From: Deltaproteobacteria bacterium
GTDB taxonomy: Bacteria > Desulfobacterota > Deferrimicrobia > Deferrimicrobiales > Deferrimicrobiaceae
Direction: 5' to 3'
Assembly (NCBI GenBank): GCA_021815305.1
Contig: JAKAHC010000011.1
Location: forward strand, 1 to 63,735
Length of the DNA stretch: 63,735 bases
Part shown: positions 1-63,735 of the stretch, piece after piece
Numbering within the stretch: position 1 is the first letter of the stretch
Layout: every line of letters begins with the position of its first letter
The notes under the pieces: model-generated
The model's database searches: none
Told to the model about the DNA's origin: nothing
The model's input: the letters and a program-made list of their open reading frames with translations, nothing else
Translations under genes and position numbers: made by a program

Positions 1-127
1 TGATCCCGGCCACTATGCGAAAACCATAACCGCCAGCGTCGCTTCGCTCCGGAAGGCGGCCGGCATCCGCCGGATCAGGTGGCCGGGTTCCAACGGAACA
101 GGCGGCCGGAATCACCGGAATACGCAC
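1..127. repeat. Left copy of 127-bp terminal inverted repeat
   Basis: Bases 1-127 are an exact reverse complement of bases 63609-63735. Identity stops abruptly at base 128. The repeat holds several GGCCGG cores, such as GGTGGCCGGG and GGCGGCCGGAATC, which recall the repeated ends of IS21-like elements; that identification is inference only. An exact length of 127 equals a k-mer size widely used by de Bruijn graph assemblers, so this is most simply the edge of a multicopy element at which the contig stopped. Confidence 0.9.
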
Positions 128-54276: not shown

Positions 54277-54286
54277 AATTCACACC

Positions 54287-54368
<82 letters not shown>

Positions 54369-54370
<2 letters not shown>

Positions 54371-55526
54371 AAAGGGTTACGGGAATTTCCCGTAGCCCTT
54401 TTTCTTTGGATTGCCGTAATTCTGCCGTAAAACACTCGGCCGGAATTGCAGGCGTCTCCGTTTCCCATCCTGCCTCCCGCAAGCCTGCCAAGAAACGCCC
54501 TCCGTCCTTGCGCATCCGGTTCCGGATGTATTTGCCGTAATGCCGGTAGAGCATCTCGGTGCTCGTGTGGCCCAGCATCCGTGCGCCCCACAGGGGATCT
54601 TCGCCGGCCGAGAGCATCAGCGAGGCGAAGGTGTGGCGCGTCTGGTACATCGTGCGTCTTCTTAGGCCGCACTTGTCGAGCGTGGGATACCAGGTGCGCT
54701 TGCGCAGGTTGTTTACATCCAGCGGGGCCCCCTTCGGACTGGTGAAGACGTAGACGGCGTCGGGAGGGGACATCGCCCGATGCCGCTTCAGCACCTCGAG
54801 CAGCGGCGGCAGGATGTCGATGTCCCGGTACGAGGAGTCGGTCTTGGGCGGGCCCTCCTTGCCCTGAACGCGGCCCTCCTTCACCGAGATCATCTTGAGG
54901 TGTATGAGATCCACGTTGACCCATTTCAGCGCCAGCATTTCGTTCGGGCGCATCCCGGTGAAGAAGCAGGTGAAGAAATACGCCTGATACTCCGGCTCCA
55001 CGGTCTCCAGGAAGAGGCGCATTTCCTGGATGGAGAACGGATCGGCGAACACCTTCTCCTCGCGGAACTTCTCGATTTCCGAAAACGGGTTTTCGTTGAT
55101 GTCCTTGCGCTTCTTCGCCTCGTTGAAGAGGCATTTCACCGGGACGCAGATGTTGTTCTTTCTCTTGCCGGAGAGGTTGCCGAGGCTGTCCGCGAAATCC
55201 TCGACGTCGCGGACCGCGATGCGGGACATCGGCATCTTCCCGAAGTGCGGGATGGCGTAGAGGTCCATGATGGACCGATAGTCCCGCCAGGTGGACAGGG
55301 CGAGTTTCTTCTTTTTCCGCTCCAGCCACTGTTCGGCATACTCCTTAAACGTGGTCGAAACCGAATCGTAGATTCCCAGGTGGACCTGCTTGGCAATCTT
55401 CACGCGCAGGTCCTGCTCCACGAGCTCCGCGACGGACCTGGAGCAGCCGACCATCTTCCGGATCCTTCCACCTCGGCCGTCGCTTAAATCCACCATGTAC
55501 GAATTGCCGATGCTCCGTAAGGACAC
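54369..55526 (-). CDS. int: Tyrosine integrase of the element
   Basis: A 385-residue phage-type integrase. It has an N-terminal arm-binding segment (1-55), a SAM-like core-binding domain (about 60-160), and a catalytic domain with Arg in TGMRPNEMLALKW, YQTRHTFASLML, LGHTSTEMLYRHY and nucleophile Tyr in that last motif. The usual first His of HxxR is Tyr here, a variant seen in related integrases. It converges on the tRNA. Start GTG 55526 follows CGGAGG by six bases. Confidence 0.92.
54372..54404 (+). terminator. Terminator of tRNA-fMet, overlapping the integrase 3' end
   Basis: AAGGGTTACGGGA (54372-54384) pairs with TCCCGTAGCCCTT (54388-54400), followed by TTTC. The same stem encodes the last residues of the integrase on the other strand. 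Confidence 0.8.
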
Positions 55527-55593
55527 GGCTTACCTCCGTCGGTCACCCAACGGCAGGTAACGGCGTTTAGACTCCATCACCTCCTTTCCCTCC

Positions 55594-55863
55594 TCAAGCC
55601 TTGCTCGTTTTCCGGGTTCTTGCAAGGCGTATCCGGTGGGTGGAAAGGATCTCCGAGGCGATCTCTTCCGGCTTCCTGGCCTCCGATGTCCCTTTGGCCA
55701 TGGCGCGTGTCCACTCGACGATGACGTCAGGCTCGAATCGGACGGCGGCGGGAAGCTTGATGTGGGGGATGAACCCCTTGCTCGTCCAGTACCGAACCGT
55801 CGAGATCGGGACGGCGAGGTATTTTGCGACGTCATCGGCCCTCCAGAGCGTTTGCATGTCCAT
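55594..55863 (-). CDS. AlpA/MerR-type helix-turn-helix protein (excisionase candidate)
   Basis: An 89-residue protein with a typical excisionase-type winged helix: TLWRADDVAKYLAVPISTVRYW followed by a wing reading IKLPAAVRFEPDVIVEW. Such proteins next to integrases direct excision or control int. Start chosen at ATG 55863, six bases after GAGGAG; the frame runs nine codons further but without a ribosome site. It lies 67 bases upstream of int in transcription order. Confidence 0.8.
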   Translation of the reverse strand: MDMQTLWRADDVAKYLAVPISTVRYWTSKGFIPHIKLPAAVRFEPDVIVEWTRAMAKGTSEARKPEEIASEILSTHRIRLARTRKTSKA

Positions 55864-55977
55864 CGATTGCTCCTCAAATATTTCTTTCAACCTGCCCGCC
55901 GCTATGCAAACGAATCACATATAAAAAAACGGGGGGCTCACCAAAATCGGTGAGCCCCTGGTTGCCGCCGCCTTCCT

Positions 55978-56433
55978 TCACTTCGCCCGGGCCTTCTCCT
56001 TGCTCTGCTCCAGAAGCTTCGTCACGATCGAGCCGACCTTTTCCTCAAGCTGGGCGTTAAACTCCGCCTCCTCAGGCCGCGGGGAAAGTCGCTCGACGAT
56101 CCCATACCCCGCGAGGTAGTCAGCATCGTTTTCCGGAATATGGACAATCTCCCCGGGCACAACGTGGGCCCCATTGATCCCGCAGGGGCGCAGGATCCTC
56201 ACTTCGACCGGGCCGCTGTGCAGCGCCTCCTGGCGCCTCTTCTCCTCTGCCTGCGCCGCGGCCACCGGATCCGGCAGGGAGTAGGCCGCCTGGCCCCAGC
56301 CCACGAGTTGCCGGGCATCTTCTTCGGGCACCTTTACGACGGCACCGGCAGGCATGTGCACTCCCGCGATCCCGACGGGCTTGAGGAGATGTACCTCGAC
56401 GATTTTCGGTGCCTCGACTGGAAATCTCTCCAT
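55978..56433 (-). CDS. Hypothetical protein with two tandem sequence repeats, next to capsid gene
   Basis: A 151-residue protein. Two related units of about 40 residues share the pattern VxVxxLxPxGIxGxHxxxGxxVxxPExDAxxLxGxG (about residues 12-50 and 75-113). A charged Gln/Glu/Ala helix separates them, and a Lys-rich helix ends the protein. I recognise no family. It starts 29 bases after the capsid stop behind GAAGGAGG, so it may be a capsid accessory or decoration protein; this is inference from position. Confidence 0.75.
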   Translation of the reverse strand: MERFPVEAPKIVEVHLLKPVGIAGVHMPAGAVVKVPEEDARQLVGWGQAAYSLPDPVAAAQAEEKRRQEALHSGPVEVRILRPCGINGAHVVPGEIVHIPENDADYLAGYGIVERLSPRPEEAEFNAQLEEKVGSIVTKLLEQSKEKARAK

Positions 56434-56462
56434 TTCAGCCTCCTTCGTGTGGTGTTATCGAA

Positions 56463-57524
56463 TCAGCTCACGGTCGTGGCTACGGTGAACGCCGACGGGA
56501 AGGGAACGCCGACGTCCGCGTACAGGAACCCGAAGAACTCGACGAGCCCCTGCTTTTTGAAGATGAACGGGTCGACCACCAGGTCGAGTCCTCCCCACAT
56601 TCCGATGACGAGCTGTGAAAAGTCCCCGCCCACGATGTTCCCGGCGTCAACCTGGGCTGTCGCATGGCACGGATACGGGCCGATCTTGTTTTCCTCGTTG
56701 ACGATGAAGCCCAGGTACGTTCCCCTCGCCCGGTTCTTTAAGAGGTCCCGGGTGTCGGGATGGGCGACGTAGGCGAACGTCTCCTCGTTCGCGTTTGCCG
56801 CGAGAGTGTTCTTCTCAAAGGTAGTAATCCCCTGCCAGTCGATTGACGCCCCGGCCACCGATCCGATGGCGGTCTGGTTGAAGAGGCCCTTCGGCTGCCC
56901 CGAAGCGCCGCTGCCGAAGAACGCCGCCCGGTCGAGCGCCACGCTTAAGGATTTGGCCAGGCCATTGAGGAGTAGATCGGTTAAGAGCGGGTTGTCTGCC
57001 TGTTCGAGCCATTGTCTTGTCGCCTGCGTCGCCCCGTACCCGATCTTCGGCGAGAGCGTGACCTGGCCGAAAGTCGGGATGTCCGGCGTGATATCGGTCC
57101 CGGGCGCCTCGACCGTCCACCCGTTGCTGTAATCCCCGGTCTGTTTCACGATTGCGATGTTGCTCTTGAGATCCGGGAGCACCGTGGCGCCCGCCTTCAT
57201 CGCGACCGTCTTGTTCCGCAGAACCTCGACGAACGGCATGACCGAGGTCTGAACCGCCGCTCCACCGGCGGAAAAGGTCCCCTGATGGAGCGGCGCCCGA
57301 ACCAAAAGATCGAGGGGGATATAAATCCCGCGGGGTGCCCGCTCGCACCTTTTGGCGATCATCTCGGAAACCTCCGTCTCGATCCCCTTGTAGCTGCGAT
57401 CGTCGATAGCGGCCCGAATGAAGTTGCCGATGTTGTAACGCTTTCTTTCACGCTCGGAGAGGGCGACCCCTCCGAGAAGTTCAGTTTCTTCCGGTGCCCA
57501 TGGCTTTGCTCGTAGTGCGCTCAT
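56463..57524 (-). CDS. HK97-fold major capsid protein
   Basis: A 353-residue protein of the phage HK97 capsid type. The segment RKRYNIGNFIRAAI resembles the region before the mature capsid domain, which continues through GGDFSQLVIGMWGGLDLVVD and AFYGS-like AAFFGSGASGQPKGL. Start chosen at ATG 57524 (AGGAGG five bases upstream); upstream in-frame codons encode a basic stretch of doubtful reality. No protease, portal, terminase or tail genes are nearby. An encapsulin-like shell protein is a less likely alternative. Confidence 0.85.
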   Translation of the reverse strand: MSALRAKPWAPEETELLGGVALSERERKRYNIGNFIRAAIDDRSYKGIETEVSEMIAKRCERAPRGIYIPLDLLVRAPLHQGTFSAGGAAVQTSVMPFVEVLRNKTVAMKAGATVLPDLKSNIAIVKQTGDYSNGWTVEAPGTDITPDIPTFGQVTLSPKIGYGATQATRQWLEQADNPLLTDLLLNGLAKSLSVALDRAAFFGSGASGQPKGLFNQTAIGSVAGASIDWQGITTFEKNTLAANANEETFAYVAHPDTRDLLKNRARGTYLGFIVNEENKIGPYPCHATAQVDAGNIVGGDFSQLVIGMWGGLDLVVDPFIFKKQGLVEFFGFLYADVGVPFPSAFTVATTVS

Positions 57525-57659
57525 CTTTGCCTCCTGGCTCGCTCGCGAGGAGCGTTTTTTTCTTGCCACTGCTACGTCTGTTGCCACCGTTGCCCGTCGC
57601 CGGGTCTCACGCCGTTTCCGCCGGCGGAAGGAAAGGAAAGTTCGTCGCATCGCGCGAAC

Positions 57660-57923
57660 TCATCGCGTCCTGACCCATCCGCCGAGGTAGTCGTCGTGGA
57701 ACCCGGCCCATGGCGTGTATCCCTTTCGTTCCTTGAACTTCTTCAGGTAGACCTCGTAGAAGATCAAGTTGCCTTCGAGCCAGTACACCCCCGGCCGAAG
57801 GCGCTTAAGGATTCCGGCGTGGGTTAGTTGCTGGACCCTGCGGGGGGAAATGCCCAATTCGAGCGCCAGGGTCGTCACGTCGACGAAATGCCTCCGCGTA
57901 CGTCGCATTCCTTTTCGCGGCAA
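57660..57923 (-). CDS. Small helix-turn-helix protein (Nu1/MerR-like)
   Basis: An 87-residue protein with the helix-turn-helix VTTLALELGISPRRVQQLTHAGIL and a short wing. The fold matches the N-terminal domain of phage small terminases (Nu1 type) and of excisionases. Position directly before the capsid gene makes DNA packaging recognition attractive, but transcription control is equally possible. Start TTG 57923 lies ten bases after AAGGAG; ATG 57908 is an alternative. Confidence 0.65.
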   Translation of the reverse strand: MPRKGMRRTRRHFVDVTTLALELGISPRRVQQLTHAGILKRLRPGVYWLEGNLIFYEVYLKKFKERKGYTPWAGFHDDYLGGWVRTR

Positions 57924-58072
57924 GTCAGGTTTTCTCCTTATTTTTCAAAGGTCGGACCCCCAAAGAGAAACGCAACGGAAGAATTTTTTCCTATCGCTAG
58001 CCGAAGACCGCGGTCGCGCGTCACCCGCTTCCAATAGGCCCCGGAAGTACCTATGGCCGCCAGGGGGCACCG

Positions 58073-58273
58073 TCAGTTCAACCTCTCTTTACCCGTCGCC
58101 CGCTCGCACATTTGGGTAAACGCCGCCCGCTCCTCCGGCGTGGCCTTCTCCAACTTGTCCATGCACTCGTGGCAGATCGCATGAACGACGACCTGATGGC
58201 CGGTGAGATGGTCATGCCAGGTACCGAGGGTACCGGCGAGAAACATAGACTTGCCGCACCCGGGGCAGTTCAT
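58073..58273 (-). CDS. Small zinc-ribbon protein
   Basis: A 66-residue protein with CPGCGKSM and CHECMDKL, a CxxC/CxxC pair typical of a single zinc ribbon, separated by a His-rich strand (HDHLTGHQVVVHA). The C-terminal helix is charged. Function unknown; it lies between the replication gene and the capsid module. The start ATG 58273 has only a weak G-rich ribosome site. Confidence 0.6.
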   Translation of the reverse strand: MNCPGCGKSMFLAGTLGTWHDHLTGHQVVVHAICHECMDKLEKATPEERAAFTQMCERATGKERLN

Positions 58274-58401
58274 ACAGCCCCCGCCACGGGGGCCATGGGA
58301 TCGCAACGTCTCATTCCGACTCCTCCTATTCGCGGTCTGTGGATGGTTTCAGGTATTCCGACTCGGGATCGGGTAATGGCGGATTGGGGGTTGTCGAACT
58401 C

Positions 58402-58622
58402 TTCACCTTTCACCACCCCCTCACGCGCACACGCGGAAACGGGGGCAAATAAGGCGCGATTACTGATAAGCGCGAGAGGGGGTGAAAGGTGAAGAGTGGT
58501 GAAGAGAATACAAAAGGTATTGAAATATATATAACTCTCTCCATATTCTCGCTTCTCACTTTTCACCACTTTTCACCCCCTCCCCGGCGGCGGTCACCGA
58601 ACTGTTCACCAAACTATTCACC
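58402..58622. other. Putative replication origin: TTCACC iterons flanking an AT-rich patch
   Basis: TTCACC occurs at 58402, 58409, 58562, 58572, 58605 and 58617, and its complement GGTGAA at 58481, 58488 and 58498. The copy at 58603-58610 is TGTTCACC, the octamer I recall as the type I iteron of satellite P4. The left groups form an inverted repeat with CTCTTCACCTTTCACC. Between the groups, 58501-58555 is strikingly AT-rich. It overlaps the 3' end of the replication gene. Confidence 0.6.
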
Positions 58623-60802
58623 CCTCGACTTGCCTTCCAGTCTCCCGCCTCGCCGACATCCTGCATGGCATCCCGTTCTCGGAGTCGATAGAATCGACGG
58701 GCCGGACCAGAGGTGCTCACCGGCGCGTGGATCGTGATCGTTCCCTGCTGTTGCAGTGTTTCCACGAGGGTGACGAATCGGCGGGAATCGGTTTTCATCC
58801 GCTTCAGGAGGACGCTGTGGGCAAGTTCGCCTCCCGGGGCTTTCCGAAGCTTCTGCAGGAACTTCAAGCACTCAGCGTGGAATGGATTGTCCGCCACGTG
58901 GCTTTTGGCCATGAAAAGCATTCGTCTCGTTTGGTGGACGACGAAGCGGCTGGCCCACTCGGCCGCCGTCTTTCCGATTTCCGGGTTCTCGTGGTTTTCG
59001 CTCACCGCGTAGAGCAGCGCGAGCTTGAAGGCGTGCTCGCTCACCCGGCCCCAGACCGTCGTCCCGACCGAGTCGCCCCCGGCTTCCGCTCGGTCATATT
59101 CCCTTTCCGCCTCCAGCCGAGTCTGGGTGAGGATCTCCATCGCCTCGTCCGTGTGCGCGATGATTCGTGGTACCGGATGCCATTTCTCGAGGTTCCCCGT
59201 GCCCGGATGGAAATCGGCCCACCACTTCGCAGTTGAAAGCACCCGTTCTGGCAGCGCGCGGATCTTGGGATACTGGCCCGGGCCCCTGGCTCCGCATTCC
59301 AGGATGATCATCCGTGCAAAGAATCCATTGGTGAGCATCCGCTCGGAGAGCGCCTCGTAGTAGTGGTTCGGGATCGCCGTGCCGAAGATCACCAGGTGCG
59401 GCTGGTCGATGTTTCCCGCCGATTCCTTGCCGGCCTTGCTCCGCATGGGGAAGGCCGAGTTGGCCGAGGAGTACATCGTCAACAGCGTGCCCATGATGCT
59501 CTCGTGCCGGGCGTCTTTTGCCTTGTTGATCGACTGGAGCATTCCGTCGATCTCATCGGTCTGGAACAGCATGCAGGATTGCAGAAACAATGCGTCCTGG
59601 ATTCCTTCCCCGGATGCGAAACGTCCGCCGACGTGGTTGGAGAGTCCCACGGCGTTCAGGATTTCCATGTTGACCTTCCGCGGTTGATCCTTTCCGGCGG
59701 CGGAGTGCGCCAGCCCCAGGAGGTAAAGGTTCGTCCGGTTGTCGGCCGGATCGCGGACCTTGCGTCCCGCGAGCACGGCCTGAAGCGCCAGTGCCCCACC
59801 GAAGGCCATCACCACGTTGGGGTACGGCGCGATCGCAAGGCAGTGGTCCATGACCTCGGAGATGAATCCGGGGACCCGCATGAGTTCCGCCGGGAGAAGC
59901 CCGGGATCGGGTAAAGCGGACGCAGGGTCGTCGAACGACAACTCGCACGCATGGTCCTGCCCCCAATGGTCTTCGACCATCGCAACGGCCGCTTGATCGG
60001 GTTCGTAGCGGCAAATGGAGGCTGCGACCTGCTCAACCTCGCGGATGGGCAATGGCGGGCGGCACCGGATTCGGTTCACTTGTTCGAGGGCACCGAAGAT
60101 CTCCTCCTGGCACATCCCCACTCGTCGCATGGTGCCCGCCAGGCGCGCCAGGGTGCCATTCCGTTGGCCTTCGGGAATCAGGTTACTCTCCGGCGGCAGA
60201 TCGGCGCCCTGGGGCGAAACGTGGGCGCCCTGGGCCGGGATCTGGCCGTCCCCGCCGTTGTCGTTCGCGCCACGGGCAAAGAGGTCGCCCGGGCTGTCGA
60301 GCAGATCGACCAGCCAGGCTGGCGGCTCGGGCACATCCTCAGGGGCGACGTTCAGCTCGAACGTTTCAGCCCACCGGTACGCCTTGCCGTCTACCACCGA
60401 GGGCGGCGCGACGATATAGCCGCCGTCGGCCCGTGTGTCGACGTTGGGCGCGATCTTCCCGGTCGTGTTCCGCCAGGTCTTCCCGACCGGCTGCCGGAAG
60501 ATGTGGTGGCGCCCCCCGCGAGGGGTACGGGACATGGGGCCACGGACGAGGTCCAGCGCTTTCTCCGCGTCGGCCGGCCAAGGATTGTCCGCTCCATCTA
60601 CGTCAATGACCAGCAGACTTGCTGTAGGAATTCCTACGTTGGCGTCCGGATATTTCTCCCACCACGATTGGATCTGCCCCGGATCGGTGGTCGCATCCTT
60701 GAACCCACTGGGTGTCAAGGGCGCCTTGCCCCCAGGGACACAGGGGAAGACCGGGTATCCCAGCGCCGCGTACCGCAGTGCGGCCTCCATCGTCATCGGC
60801 AT
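58556..60802 (-). CDS. Replication protein: PrimPol N-domain with DUF3987-type helicase domain
   Basis: A 748-residue protein. Residues 1-190 form a bifunctional primase-polymerase domain (ALGYPVFPCVPGGKAPL, catalytic VIDVDG, RTPRGGRHHIF, TRADGGYIVAPPS). A linker to about 270 includes a PriCT-like segment. Residues about 290-660 form an ATPase with a variant P-loop AHSAAGKDQPRK (Asp in place of Ser/Thr) and acidic FQTDEIDGML. It should start replication of the element at the neighbouring iterons. The start ATG 60802 has only AAGG before it; ATG codons also lie at residues 3 and 5. Confidence 0.85.
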   Translation of the reverse strand: MPMTMEAALRYAALGYPVFPCVPGGKAPLTPSGFKDATTDPGQIQSWWEKYPDANVGIPTASLLVIDVDGADNPWPADAEKALDLVRGPMSRTPRGGRHHIFRQPVGKTWRNTTGKIAPNVDTRADGGYIVAPPSVVDGKAYRWAETFELNVAPEDVPEPPAWLVDLLDSPGDLFARGANDNGGDGQIPAQGAHVSPQGADLPPESNLIPEGQRNGTLARLAGTMRRVGMCQEEIFGALEQVNRIRCRPPLPIREVEQVAASICRYEPDQAAVAMVEDHWGQDHACELSFDDPASALPDPGLLPAELMRVPGFISEVMDHCLAIAPYPNVVMAFGGALALQAVLAGRKVRDPADNRTNLYLLGLAHSAAGKDQPRKVNMEILNAVGLSNHVGGRFASGEGIQDALFLQSCMLFQTDEIDGMLQSINKAKDARHESIMGTLLTMYSSANSAFPMRSKAGKESAGNIDQPHLVIFGTAIPNHYYEALSERMLTNGFFARMIILECGARGPGQYPKIRALPERVLSTAKWWADFHPGTGNLEKWHPVPRIIAHTDEAMEILTQTRLEAEREYDRAEAGGDSVGTTVWGRVSEHAFKLALLYAVSENHENPEIGKTAAEWASRFVVHQTRRMLFMAKSHVADNPFHAECLKFLQKLRKAPGGELAHSVLLKRMKTDSRRFVTLVETLQQQGTITIHAPVSTSGPARRFYRLRERDAMQDVGEAGDWKASRGVNSLVNSSVTAAGEGVKSGEK

Positions 60803-60923
60803 TGGCTGACCTTAAAATGGCACATCGGCCAGATCCTCCTTCTTCTCGTTCTCACGTGCGTCTTCCTCCTCGTTCCATCCCGGTTCCCGCCGGTAGCACT
60901 TCTTCTCCCGGGTAGAAAGAAGA

Positions 60924-61187
60924 TCACCCCTTCGCATCCTCGCGGGGCGTGATGCGGTGCTGTTCCCGCCAGGCGAGCAGGTCCGCGAGTAGGTACCGCA
61001 CGGCGCGGCCGTACTTGCAGTATCGCGGGCCGCGGCCCAGGTGCCGCCAGTTCCGAAGGGTTTGAAGGCTTACGCCAAGGATTGCTACAACATCCCGTTC
61101 TCCGACAGCCCGAAGCTGTCCGATCTCGGGAGGGAGCGGGGTCAGATTCGTCATCGGGATACCTGCAGTTCGTTCATCGATTCGCAT
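60924..61187 (-). CDS. Helix-turn-helix DNA-binding protein (excisionase/AlpA-like)
   Basis: An 87-residue protein with RAVGERDVVAILGVSLQTLRNW, a MerR/excisionase-type helix-turn-helix, then GRAVRYLLADLLAW as wing. It is first in the leftward transcription order and so may control the element's replication-capsid operon. Start ATG 61187 has GGAGGTG before it; an upstream in-frame start at 61238 does not. Confidence 0.75.
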   Translation of the reverse strand: MRIDERTAGIPMTNLTPLPPEIGQLRAVGERDVVAILGVSLQTLRNWRHLGRGPRYCKYGRAVRYLLADLLAWREQHRITPREDAKG

Positions 61188-61934
61188 AAGCACCTCCAAA
61201 ATGGAAAGGCCCGGGAAGCCATGAGCCGCCCGGGCCATCCTTGCGTCTTCTCCGACGCGAGATTGAGTATGTCCTGAAACTAACGGGTATTCGGAAGGTA
61301 CTCCAAATTTACCCCTTTCCCGGGGGGATCAGGAAGGGGTCAAATTGGATCACGTGAACCCCCGCCCGCTTCCCGACACGATCCGGATCATATTCCAGAA
61401 ACTACCCGATATCTGGGGGGTAGACAAATCAAAGCGGGGTAAAACGGGGAAGCGTCCATAATCCTTATGGTATTTGTGCTCACCAGCTCCAATTTCGGGC
61501 GCTCCTACCCGCTGACCACAATTACCACCTATATCTTAAACGATACCGTTTTACCGGGGGGTCGTAAATACCGTGCCTCCGGAATCGGTGCATTTTTTCC
61601 ACGCCCCGACCATGAAACGGGAATCGGCGCGTTTTTATCGGAAAGCAAGGTGGAGCCTCTCGCCGCGGGTGATAGGTTGGAATGCCGTAAGACCGAGTTA
61701 TCCGGCATTATGTGAGTGGCGATATTCAGATGGAACAGGGCCCACGTGATGGAAAGGTACCGTCATCAGACCGCATGGTACGAGAATGGGCAGAAGAAGG
61801 GCGAAGCCGAATACCGAACGACCTCCAGATGCCGGGGTGGAAGGGTTGGGGGGTGTAGGGGAATTCCTTGATAGTCGGCGGGAAGAGTGAATAGGATATC
61901 CGCGAGGTGTAGGATATAATAGAGCGAAAATAAG
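61188..61934. other. Long non-coding control region between divergent element modules
   Basis: About 750 bases with no gene I can support. It holds an imperfect inverted repeat, AATTTACCCCTTTCC (61306-61320) against GGAAGGGGTCAAATT (61332-61346), and two 17-base direct repeats of pattern GGAATCGGYGCRTTTTT (61581-61597 and 61620-61636). It should contain the leftward promoter. A small rightward frame at 61467-61715 lacks coding character and a ribosome site. Confidence 0.6.
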
Positions 61935-61964
61935 TTGACAAATGTGCCTCTGTTTCGCTATATT
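61935..61964 (+). promoter_or_regulatory. Strong promoter of the cargo operon
   Basis: TTGACA (61935-61940), an 18-base spacer and TATATT (61959-61964) within AT-rich DNA. Transcription should begin near 61971, five bases before the ATG at 61976, which has no ribosome site; the first gene may be read from a leaderless mRNA. Confidence 0.75.
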
Positions 61965-61975
61965 TTTTTACGGCA

Positions 61976-62560
61976 ATGGCGACTTACACCGAACGTGCTT
62001 CCGATTTGTTATCTAAAGCGGAGAAGGCATTGCGCGACTTGGTTTCGGAAGCCGCAATGTCGGGGGATTATAGCAGCGTTGTCCGTATTGCCGAATGGGC
62101 CCAAACGATACGCGAACTGCTGCACGGAAAGCAAGCATTACAGGTGCGATCGCACAGAACCGCAAAAGCAAAGCCGACGGCAGGGAAGTCCCATGTTTCC
62201 CGCAAGCAGGGTGAGTATCCCCGTTTTTTTCGAAATGACAACGAGCTCATACGGGTCGCGTGGTCGAAACGTGCAAAGAGGCAATACCGGCACAAAGCAG
62301 CCTATTCCGTTGTCGAAGCCGTGGCTCGTGCAATGCATGAGAAGGGTGCCGAGGGCCGTGTCTTTTCGACAGATGTGTTCTTGCCCGTTCGAGATAGGGA
62401 AGCTGAGGACATACCGAATTATCAAGTGTATGTTGCAATTGCGCTCCTCAAACACGCTGGATTAATCGATCAGCACGGACGACAGGGCTATTCAATTCGA
62501 CAGCCGCACGATTTTCGAAATGCAGTGGAAGCCGTCTGGAAGAATTTGCCAAGGCAATAA
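61976..62560 (+). CDS. Cargo protein 1: small basic protein, predicted winged helix
   Basis: A 194-residue protein of no family I can name. The N-terminus is helical (about 1-50), followed by a basic linker (HRTAKAKPTAGKSHVSRKQG), a core with YPRFFRNDNELIRVAWSKR, and a C-terminal helix-turn-helix-like end reading YQVYVAIALLKHAGLI then GRQGYSI, which looks like a winged helix. It is followed 16 bases later by a GHKL ATPase gene in the same direction, so the two probably act together. Codon use is AT-richer than in host genes, a sign of transfer. Confidence 0.75.
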   Translation: MATYTERASDLLSKAEKALRDLVSEAAMSGDYSSVVRIAEWAQTIRELLHGKQALQVRSHRTAKAKPTAGKSHVSRKQGEYPRFFRNDNELIRVAWSKRAKRQYRHKAAYSVVEAVARAMHEKGAEGRVFSTDVFLPVRDREAEDIPNYQVYVAIALLKHAGLIDQHGRQGYSIRQPHDFRNAVEAVWKNLPRQ

Positions 62561-62576
62561 AGTTTAGGGAGACAGC

Positions 62577-63735
62577 ATGGTCCAACCAACTTCGCTTTCT
62601 GATTATGTTCAGCCGCAAGAATTCATTTCAGCGGCGTTGAAAGCCACTACACTGTCCGATGTTGAATCATTATTGTCAAAACTGCCTATCACACCTGAAG
62701 ATAAGTACATATACGACGTAGGCAATCCTGAAAATGGCTGGCAAGCCGGGAAGTTTCACTGGATTCCGGTCGGAGGGGAACGCGGCAATGCAGGCCGGAT
62801 CAAACAAGCGAACCAGCCGGTTAACCCCATCGCAGAGCGCGCCGTCAACGGCATGGAAGCAATTATTGAAATGGCCAGGCAACGAGAAATACGGAAGGAC
62901 GCTGCCATCACCGCCCCCGTCAGTCCTCGCGATGCCGTGTTGCGATATTTTGGGTTGCCTGCCCTGGATCAACTTCCCAAGCTGGATGAAACCGAATCAT
63001 CTAAAGCAATCCGCACAAAGGCTCGCGATTTGGCGCGACAGCTACGCGTCCGCCTGATCTTCGATAAAGCCAGCCGTGAATTCACAGTTGCCATCGAAGA
63101 CGACGGGATCGGACAAGCCCCGATTCATGCTCACTCTACTCTGCTTTCTCTCGGATCTACTACAAAAGCGGACAAGTGGTACTTGATCGGGGTATTTGGC
63201 CAAGGCGGATCATCTGCGTATGCCGTAAGCAAATATTCATGGGTAATATCGCGCCGTGCAAAGGACTTACTCGACGGTGATTCCGATGGCGCAGGATGGA
63301 CGATCATCAAACACGTGTTTCCAAAAGGCCGACGAGATGACTATTTTGCTTATCTCGCCGCAGCCCCGGATGGACGTGTCCCAAGCGTCTCAGCTTGTGA
63401 TGCTGATGCTGCCCACATTTCTAACGGTACTCGGTTTGTCCACATTGGGTACGACTTCGGCCGTGGCGGTTCAGCGATTTCGCGGCAGCTGTATCCCGCC
63501 ATGAATCATGTACTCTATAACCCTGTGCTTCCGTTTGAGCTCCGCGTTGGAGAAACGGAGGCAGTTGTTTATGGAAACGGCTACCGACTTTCGTCGCTGG
63601 GTGTTCGAGTGCGTATTCCGGTGATTCCGGCCGCCTGTTCCGTTGGAACCCGGCCACCTGATCCGGCGGATGCCGGCCGCCTTCCGGAGCGAAGCGACGC
63701 TGGCGGTTATGGTTTTCGCATAGTGGCCGGGATCA
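62577..63735 (+). CDS. Cargo protein 2: GHKL-type ATPase, 3' end cut by contig-end repeat
   Basis: The frame is open from ATG 62577 (GGGAG before it) to the contig end, 386 codons with no stop. It has the three ATP-binding boxes of the Hsp90/MutL/histidine kinase fold: N box ERAVNGMEA (Glu in place of the usual Asp), G1 EDDGIG, and G2 GVFGQGGSSAYAVS. No kinase His box is present. Native sequence ends near 63608, where the 127-bp repeat takes over in frame, so the gene is either disrupted by an insertion or cut by assembly. Full-length relatives should be longer. A role in element defence or competition is inference. Confidence 0.8.
   Translation, partial: MVQPTSLSDYVQPQEFISAALKATTLSDVESLLSKLPITPEDKYIYDVGNPENGWQAGKFHWIPVGGERGNAGRIKQANQPVNPIAERAVNGMEAIIEMARQREIRKDAAITAPVSPRDAVLRYFGLPALDQLPKLDETESSKAIRTKARDLARQLRVRLIFDKASREFTVAIEDDGIGQAPIHAHSTLLSLGSTTKADKWYLIGVFGQGGSSAYAVSKYSWVISRRAKDLLDGDSDGAGWTIIKHVFPKGRRDDYFAYLAAAPDGRVPSVSACDADAAHISNGTRFVHIGYDFGRGGSAISRQLYPAMNHVLYNPVLPFELRVGETEAVVYGNGYRLSSLGVRVRIPVIPAACSVGTRPPDPADAGRLPERSDAGGYGFRIVAGI
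63609..63735. repeat. Right copy of 127-bp terminal inverted repeat
   Basis: An exact reverse complement of bases 1-127. It joins the cargo ATPase gene at 63608/63609. Both contig ends enter the repeat in the same outward orientation, so they are not a circular overlap. Confidence 0.9.

What the first reader, a model, noticed from the sequence alone, without database searches (positions are those of the whole stretch)
61976..63608. Unrecognised two-gene cargo operon with a GHKL ATPase
At the distal end of the element, where satellites often carry anti-phage genes, a strong promoter drives a small winged-helix-like basic protein followed by a GHKL ATPase (ERAVNGMEA, DDGIG, GVFGQGGSSA) with no kinase domain. 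AT-rich composition sets it apart from the core. A DNA-binding adaptor plus an Hsp90/MutL-like ATPase would be a plausible new defence system.
Basis: inference. Interest (0 to 1): 0.78.

Follow-up and report, generated by a model that had tools for sequence, protein, structure and literature searches.

The report
DNA-modification-linked split GHKL ATPase cassette
At the far end of a satellite-like mobile element sits the front half of an undescribed bacterial gene cassette, interrupted here by an insertion sequence: a small DNA-binding-type protein and an Hsp90/MutL-like ATPase that relatives carry beside a DNA methyltransferase, which suggests a restriction-type defence against foreign DNA that the reference libraries searched do not recognise.

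Summary
ORF 61976-62560 (194 aa, pI 10, C-terminal winged helix) and ORF 62577-63608 (GHKL ATPase with N-box, G1 and G2 motifs) form a tight operon after an 11/12 promoter match. The ATPase is cut at codon 344 by an insertion-sequence terminus, where the contig ends. The nearest relative (Phycisphaeraceae MAG, 72% over all 344 aa) shows the gene would have ended about 18 codons later. It continues in a second gene (~605 aa) completing a naturally split GHKL+S5 ATPase, then a convergent DNA methyltransferase (TSPPY, PF01555). The pair is conserved in all four known small-protein loci; the three readable ones end in that methyltransferase. Wider relatives have the same methyltransferase family (nine loci in all) or SspBCD phosphorothioation genes (four loci). 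In 395 genomes, all four close family methyltransferases lie beside the ATPase. PADLOC, Pfam, NCBIfam and PHROGs do not recognise the pair. Best reading: a DNA-modification-linked exclusion system with a MORC/paraMORC-like ATPase clamp. Function is inferred, not tested. In this genome the cassette is interrupted and its partner genes are missing from the assembly. The broad idea (GHKL ATPases in restriction-modification) was published in 2008.

The parts
61935..61964 (+). promoter-like site TTGACA-18-TATATT; -10 ends 11 bp before the start codon
   Evidence: 11/12 matches
61976..62560 (+). small basic protein, 194 aa, pI 10.0: N-terminal helical hairpin, linker, C-terminal winged helix
   Evidence: homologues at 38-44% identity in L033, L034, L035
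62577..63608 (+). GHKL ATPase (first half of a split GHKL+S5 ATPase), 344 codons before the IS; about 18 codons short of the end seen in L034
   Evidence: 72% identity to L034:10592-11680
63609..63735 (+). terminus of a repeated insertion sequence (TGCGTATTCCGG...), shared by C3, C7 (both ends), C11 and the window start; contig ends here
   Evidence: 7- and 8-bp target duplications at two other copies
54286..54362 (+). tRNA-Met, attachment site of the element (its 3' end recurs at G000:C3:9-33)
54369..55526 (-). tyrosine integrase of the element
   Evidence: phrog_1, 7.4e-64
56463..57650 (-). HK97-type major capsid protein of the element
58556..60802 (-). Prim-Pol / PriCT_1 / DUF3987 primase-helicase of the element
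60924..61238 (-). HTH_17 excisionase/AlpA-like regulator, divergent from the cargo

Best explanation
The window holds the promoter-proximal part of a four-gene, DNA-modification-linked exclusion (restriction-type) cassette carried as cargo by a tRNA-Met satellite-like element. Shown in relatives: the order is wHTH protein, GHKL subunit (~360 aa), S5/second subunit (~605 aa), and a convergent PF01555 DNA methyltransferase with a TSPPY motif. Inferred: the methyltransferase marks host DNA (SPPY suggests N4-methylcytosine). The wHTH protein recognises DNA or its modification state and recruits the ATPase. The two ATPase polypeptides form one Hsp90/MutL/MORC-like, ATP-gated dimeric clamp that closes on unmarked incoming DNA and blocks its use or recruits a host nuclease. 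Related fused ATPases apparently do the same next to SspBCD, where the mark is phosphorothioate. In this genome the ATPase gene is interrupted by an insertion sequence and the downstream genes are not in the assembly, so this copy is probably inactive.
For: Pair conserved with 16-18 bp spacing in all four small-protein loci. Methyltransferase of one family adjacent to the ATPase in L033, L034, L035, L040, L041, L042, L049, L053 and L061. Reciprocal test: in 395 genomes the four strong family methyltransferases (E<1e-150) lie beside the ATPase, one of them at a contig edge. More distant ATPases adjoin SspB/C/D in four loci. The split gene is seen twice (362+604 aa in L034, 360+609 aa in L053) with a shared end LDK.F..Q.VG, and these two form a clade with the window (98/99). 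AF2 plus VIA-align: GHKL+S5 fold, Hsp90 Z 17, MutL Z 14.9, Morc3 Z 14.9.
Against: No nuclease domain was recognised in any part, so the effector step is a guess. No defence library recognises the ATPase or small protein. About eight of 21 ATPase homologues with usable flanks show neither the methyltransferase nor Ssp genes nearby, so the ATPase family is broader than this system. The window's own methyltransferase and second subunit were never seen. No experiment was done.
Confidence: 0.55

Rival explanations
1. The same genes form an abortive-infection or signalling device: the wHTH/GHKL complex senses loss or absence of the modification and triggers an effector or growth arrest, not direct exclusion of DNA.
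For: No nuclease or helicase recognised in the cassette; GHKL ATPases can be switch modules, e.g. VcSduA (PMC12137116); L053 has an extra unannotated 455-aa gene directly upstream.
Against: No toxin or effector domain is shared across the loci; the constant partner is a DNA methyltransferase.
Confidence: 0.2
2. The GHKL ATPase acts in upkeep or silencing of mobile DNA (MORC/SMCHD1-like compaction of the element or of plasmids), with the methyltransferase setting its target; defence is secondary or absent.
For: Fold matches to MORC and SMCHD1 ATPase modules; homologues on plasmids, satellites and viral contigs.
Against: Convergent modification gene in varied elements and lineages and swapping with SspBCD fit self/non-self marking better.
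Confidence: 0.15
3. A decayed remnant without function in this genome; the pair survives only by recent transfer. (This concerns the state of this copy and is compatible with the best explanation for intact relatives.)
For: IS terminus inside the ATPase gene; second subunit and methyltransferase absent from a 97%-complete assembly, with a positive control for the second subunit.
Against: Assembly breaks at the IS and the partner contig is missing, so loss is not shown; the 344 codons upstream are open and 72% identical to L034.
Confidence: 0.4

Closest known systems
MORC / paraMORC1-5 GHKL ATPases in restriction-modification operons (Iyer, Abhiman and Aravind 2008, PMC2292703)
   Same: GHKL+S5 ATPase in mobile loci beside DNA methylases; no kinase domain
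   Different: The MORC-specific S5 motif is absent in all 23 homologues; no SFII helicase or fused RE-fold nuclease seen; naturally split ATPase, wHTH partner and convergent SPPY methyltransferase are not among the operon types in the two parts of that paper read here
SspABCD / type 4 BREX phosphorothioation systems
   Same: Fused relatives of the ATPase lie next to SspB, SspC and SspD (PADLOC hits)
   Different: Known restriction partners are SspE and SspFGH; the window branch uses a methyltransferase, not SspBCD
Type II-like restriction-modification with PF01555 methyltransferases
   Same: Stand-alone methyltransferase with PADLOC MTase_II hits next to a DNA-acting partner
   Different: No restriction endonuclease recognised; partner is a GHKL ATPase with a wHTH protein
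HEF_HK paraMORC-related two-component-like elements (PMC8011034)
   Same: HATPase_c_3 proteins with DNA methylases; one lies beside the ATPase in Ensifer and Devosia
   Different: Those carry a C-terminal histidine-kinase HATPase_c; the window family does not
VcSduA (Shedu with GHKL N-terminus; PMC12137116)
   Same: GHKL ATPase in an anti-phage protein
   Different: No DUF4263 nuclease domain in the window family

Membership tests
GHKL ATPase superfamily | N-box ExxxN, G1 DxGxG, G2 GxxxxG motifs | tested here: met
   ERAVN-87, DDGIGQ-175, GVFGQG-205 in the window protein
GHKL ATPase superfamily | GHKL plus S5 transducer fold | tested here: met
   Fused homologue L033: residues 43-489 match Hsp90 (Z 17), MutL (14.9), Morc3 (14.9), Topo VI (14.4); in the window only the first part is present
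MORC family proper | GhXhhpXXRhl motif in the S5 domain | tested here: not met
   No strict or loose match in 23 homologues; some of the rows, including the window, lack part or most of the S5 domain
paraMORC / RM-associated GHKL (as a kind) | GHKL+S5 with DNA methylase neighbours, lacking the MORC motif | tested here: met
   assignment to one of paraMORC1-5 was not tested
paraMORC / RM-associated GHKL (as a kind) | linked SFII helicase or RE-fold nuclease | tested here: inconclusive
   None recognised in the conserved cassette; L034 has a RecD-like helicase and Mrr_N protein upstream only
Shedu (SduA) | DUF4263 nuclease domain | tested here: not met
   No Pfam hit in full-length homologues
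SspABCD system | SspB, SspC, SspD neighbours | tested here: inconclusive
   Present beside four distant homologues but not beside the window's close relatives; nothing can be seen past the window's contig end
Type II R-M | cognate DNA methyltransferase | tested here: inconclusive
   Present in all readable relatives of the window clade; absent from the window genome's assembly
Type II R-M | restriction endonuclease | tested here: inconclusive
   No nuclease domain found by Pfam or PADLOC in cassette proteins
PICI / phage satellite | integrase at a tRNA att site, AlpA-like regulator, primase, few structural genes | tested here: met
   helper dependence not testable

The most novel reading that the evidence does not exclude
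A widespread family of GHKL clamp ATPases acts as an exchangeable, nuclease-free exclusion module that reads different self-marks: DNA base methylation in one branch, phosphorothioate in another. In the window's branch the ATPase is naturally split into two polypeptides and uses a wHTH reader, giving a prokaryotic counterpart to MORC silencing of unmarked or foreign DNA.
Probability: 0.25. Interest if true: 0.85.

Novelty: new variant of a known kind. Interest (0 to 1): 0.58.

Why it matters
If it works as inferred, it adds a modification-linked defence type without a recognisable nuclease, built on the same ATPase fold as MORC, Hsp90 and MutL. It would make testable the 2008 proposal that prokaryotic MORC relatives restrict foreign DNA by remodelling it. 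It also shows one ATPase family paired with two chemically different self-marks, and none of the four libraries searched here recognises the ATPase or the wHTH protein.

Tried and rejected
Second ATPase subunit and methyltransferase in the window's own genome: none or only weak generic matches. Other half at contig ends that carry the opposite IS end (C4, C6): no homology; those ends pair with C7 and C10-left by target duplication. Phage records: no match to the ATPase; plasmids: no small-protein match. Solved structures by sequence: nothing useful for the small protein or ATPase. Foldseek on the small protein: nothing at E<0.001; only VIA-align gave winged-helix matches, Z 7-8, which may mean a common arrangement. 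The Ig-like matches for ATPase residues ~545-660 rest on a model of mean pLDDT 65 and carry little weight. Considered and dropped: AbiEi (PADLOC 0.014 for the small protein), MORC proper, Shedu, histidine kinase. IS21 identity is suggested by end structure, 7-8 bp duplications and IstB fragments on C4 but not proven. Literature searches found no description of this cassette in the open-access library; subscription papers were not searched and only two of four parts of the 2008 paper were read.

Full report
What is there. The window is contig C10 of a 13-contig, 2.77-Mb genome. ORF 61976-62560 (194 aa, pI 10) and ORF 62577-63608 lie in one operon 16 bp apart after a TTGACA-18-TATATT site. The second ORF has the GHKL N-box, G1 and G2 motifs but only a sub-threshold HATPase_c_3 match. 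From 63609 the sequence is the terminus of a repeat that also ends contigs C3, C7 (both ends) and C11 and begins the window itself. Two other copies show 7- and 8-bp target duplications (C10-left/C6-left GCCAATG; C7-left/C4-left GGATACGG), so it is an insertion sequence, IS21-like by its ends. No partner contig for the window's right end was found.

The complete cassette in relatives. The single genome-collection scan with the small protein returned two loci, and a viral contig had already been found with the ATPase. In all three the small protein is immediately upstream of the ATPase and a PF01555 DNA methyltransferase is convergent downstream. The nearest, L034 (Phycisphaeraceae MAG), is 72% identical to the window ATPase over all 344 residues and 44% in the small protein. 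Its gene stops at 362 codons and is followed by a 604-aa ORF with its own GGAGG site. L053 (IMG/VR contig) independently has 360+609 aa, with the same end LDK.F..Q.VG. The window, L034 and L053 form a clade (98/99). So the window belongs to a split-ATPase branch and lacks about 18 codons, the second subunit and the methyltransferase.

The wider family. Fused ~760-840-aa homologues in other bacteria, viral contigs and plasmids sit next to the same methyltransferase family (L033, L035, L040, L041, L042, L049, L061) or next to SspB/SspC/SspD (L010, L011, L012, L043). A distant one on a Rhodococcus plasmid adjoins a DndB-annotated gene. In the tree, methyltransferase-linked and Ssp-linked rows separate with one change, fewer than nearly all shuffles (1 of 500 as low). 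About eight of 21 loci with usable flanks show neither partner. The converse search, with the methyltransferase profile in 395 genomes of the window's phylum, found four strong family members. Three adjoin an ATPase, and the fourth ends about 30 bp before an ATPase C-terminus (46% identity) at its contig edge. Chance adjacency within 1 kb in a 3-Mb genome is below 0.1% per pair.

Structure. The small protein's AF2 model (4 sequences, pLDDT 83-93 from residue 110) has a C-terminal winged helix; structural matches are winged-helix proteins at Z 7-8. The L033 ATPase model (10 sequences, mean pLDDT 65) has a GHKL+S5 module over residues 43-489 (Hsp90 Z 17, MutL 14.9, Morc3 14.9, Topo VI 14.4), then a beta-sandwich and C-terminal helices. 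No nuclease was recognised. The MORC-specific S5 motif is absent from all 23 homologues.

Element. tRNA-Met 54286-54362 is followed by integrase, capsid, Prim-Pol primase and an AlpA-like regulator on the minus strand, with the cargo divergent at the distal end. The tRNA 3' end recurs at C3:9-33 beside integrase remnants up to 96% identical. The missing cargo therefore probably lay between the window's right end and contig C3. The second subunit was not found in the assembly, with a positive control in the L034 genome, and the methyltransferase only as weak generic matches.

Interpretation. Shown: conserved gene order, linkage to DNA modification by two chemistries, a GHKL+S5 fold, and interruption here. 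Inferred: the methyltransferase marks self (SPPY favours m4C), the wHTH protein reads DNA, and the ATPase clamps or excludes unmarked DNA. The general idea that GHKL ATPases serve restriction-modification systems is published (PMC2292703). The split ATPase, the wHTH partner, the convergent SPPY methyltransferase and the exchange with SspBCD were not found in the papers I could read.

Noticed in passing
window 1-127 and 63609-63735: Both window ends are termini of the same insertion sequence; C10-left and C6-left share a 7-bp target duplication GCCAATG, so these contigs can be ordered.
   Followed up: yes
window 54286-54362 and G000:C3:1-1700 (L087, L089): tRNA-Met is a repeated integration site: a second copy of its 3' end on C3 is followed by fragments of several related integrases (61-96% identity).
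   Followed up: partly
window 54369-61238: Satellite-like element with its own HK97 major capsid gene, Prim-Pol primase, AlpA-like regulator and integrase; resembles capsid-encoding satellites.
   Followed up: partly
L034:2139-9687: Directly upstream of the Phycisphaeraceae cassette: Eco57I/MmeI-type methylase, Mrr_N protein and a RecD-like helicase, possibly another restriction system.
   Followed up: no
L060:2675-4489: A second GHKL protein (PADLOC MzaB, 5.7e-9) directly upstream of the fused ATPase.
   Followed up: no
L010:5279-7609 and L011:12612-14972: HATPase_c_3 plus HATPase_c 'sensor histidine kinase' proteins (HEF_HK/paraMORC-like) lie next to both SspBCD and the ATPase in Ensifer and Devosia plasmids.
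   Followed up: partly
L041:10684-11928 and L048:8876-9997: A different upstream partner (373-414 aa, 43% identical to each other, C-terminal PaaX-like winged helix) replaces the small protein beside fused ATPases.
   Followed up: partly
L031 and L052: Distant ATPase homologues on very large viral contigs (597 kb and 372 kb) without visible modification genes nearby.
   Followed up: no
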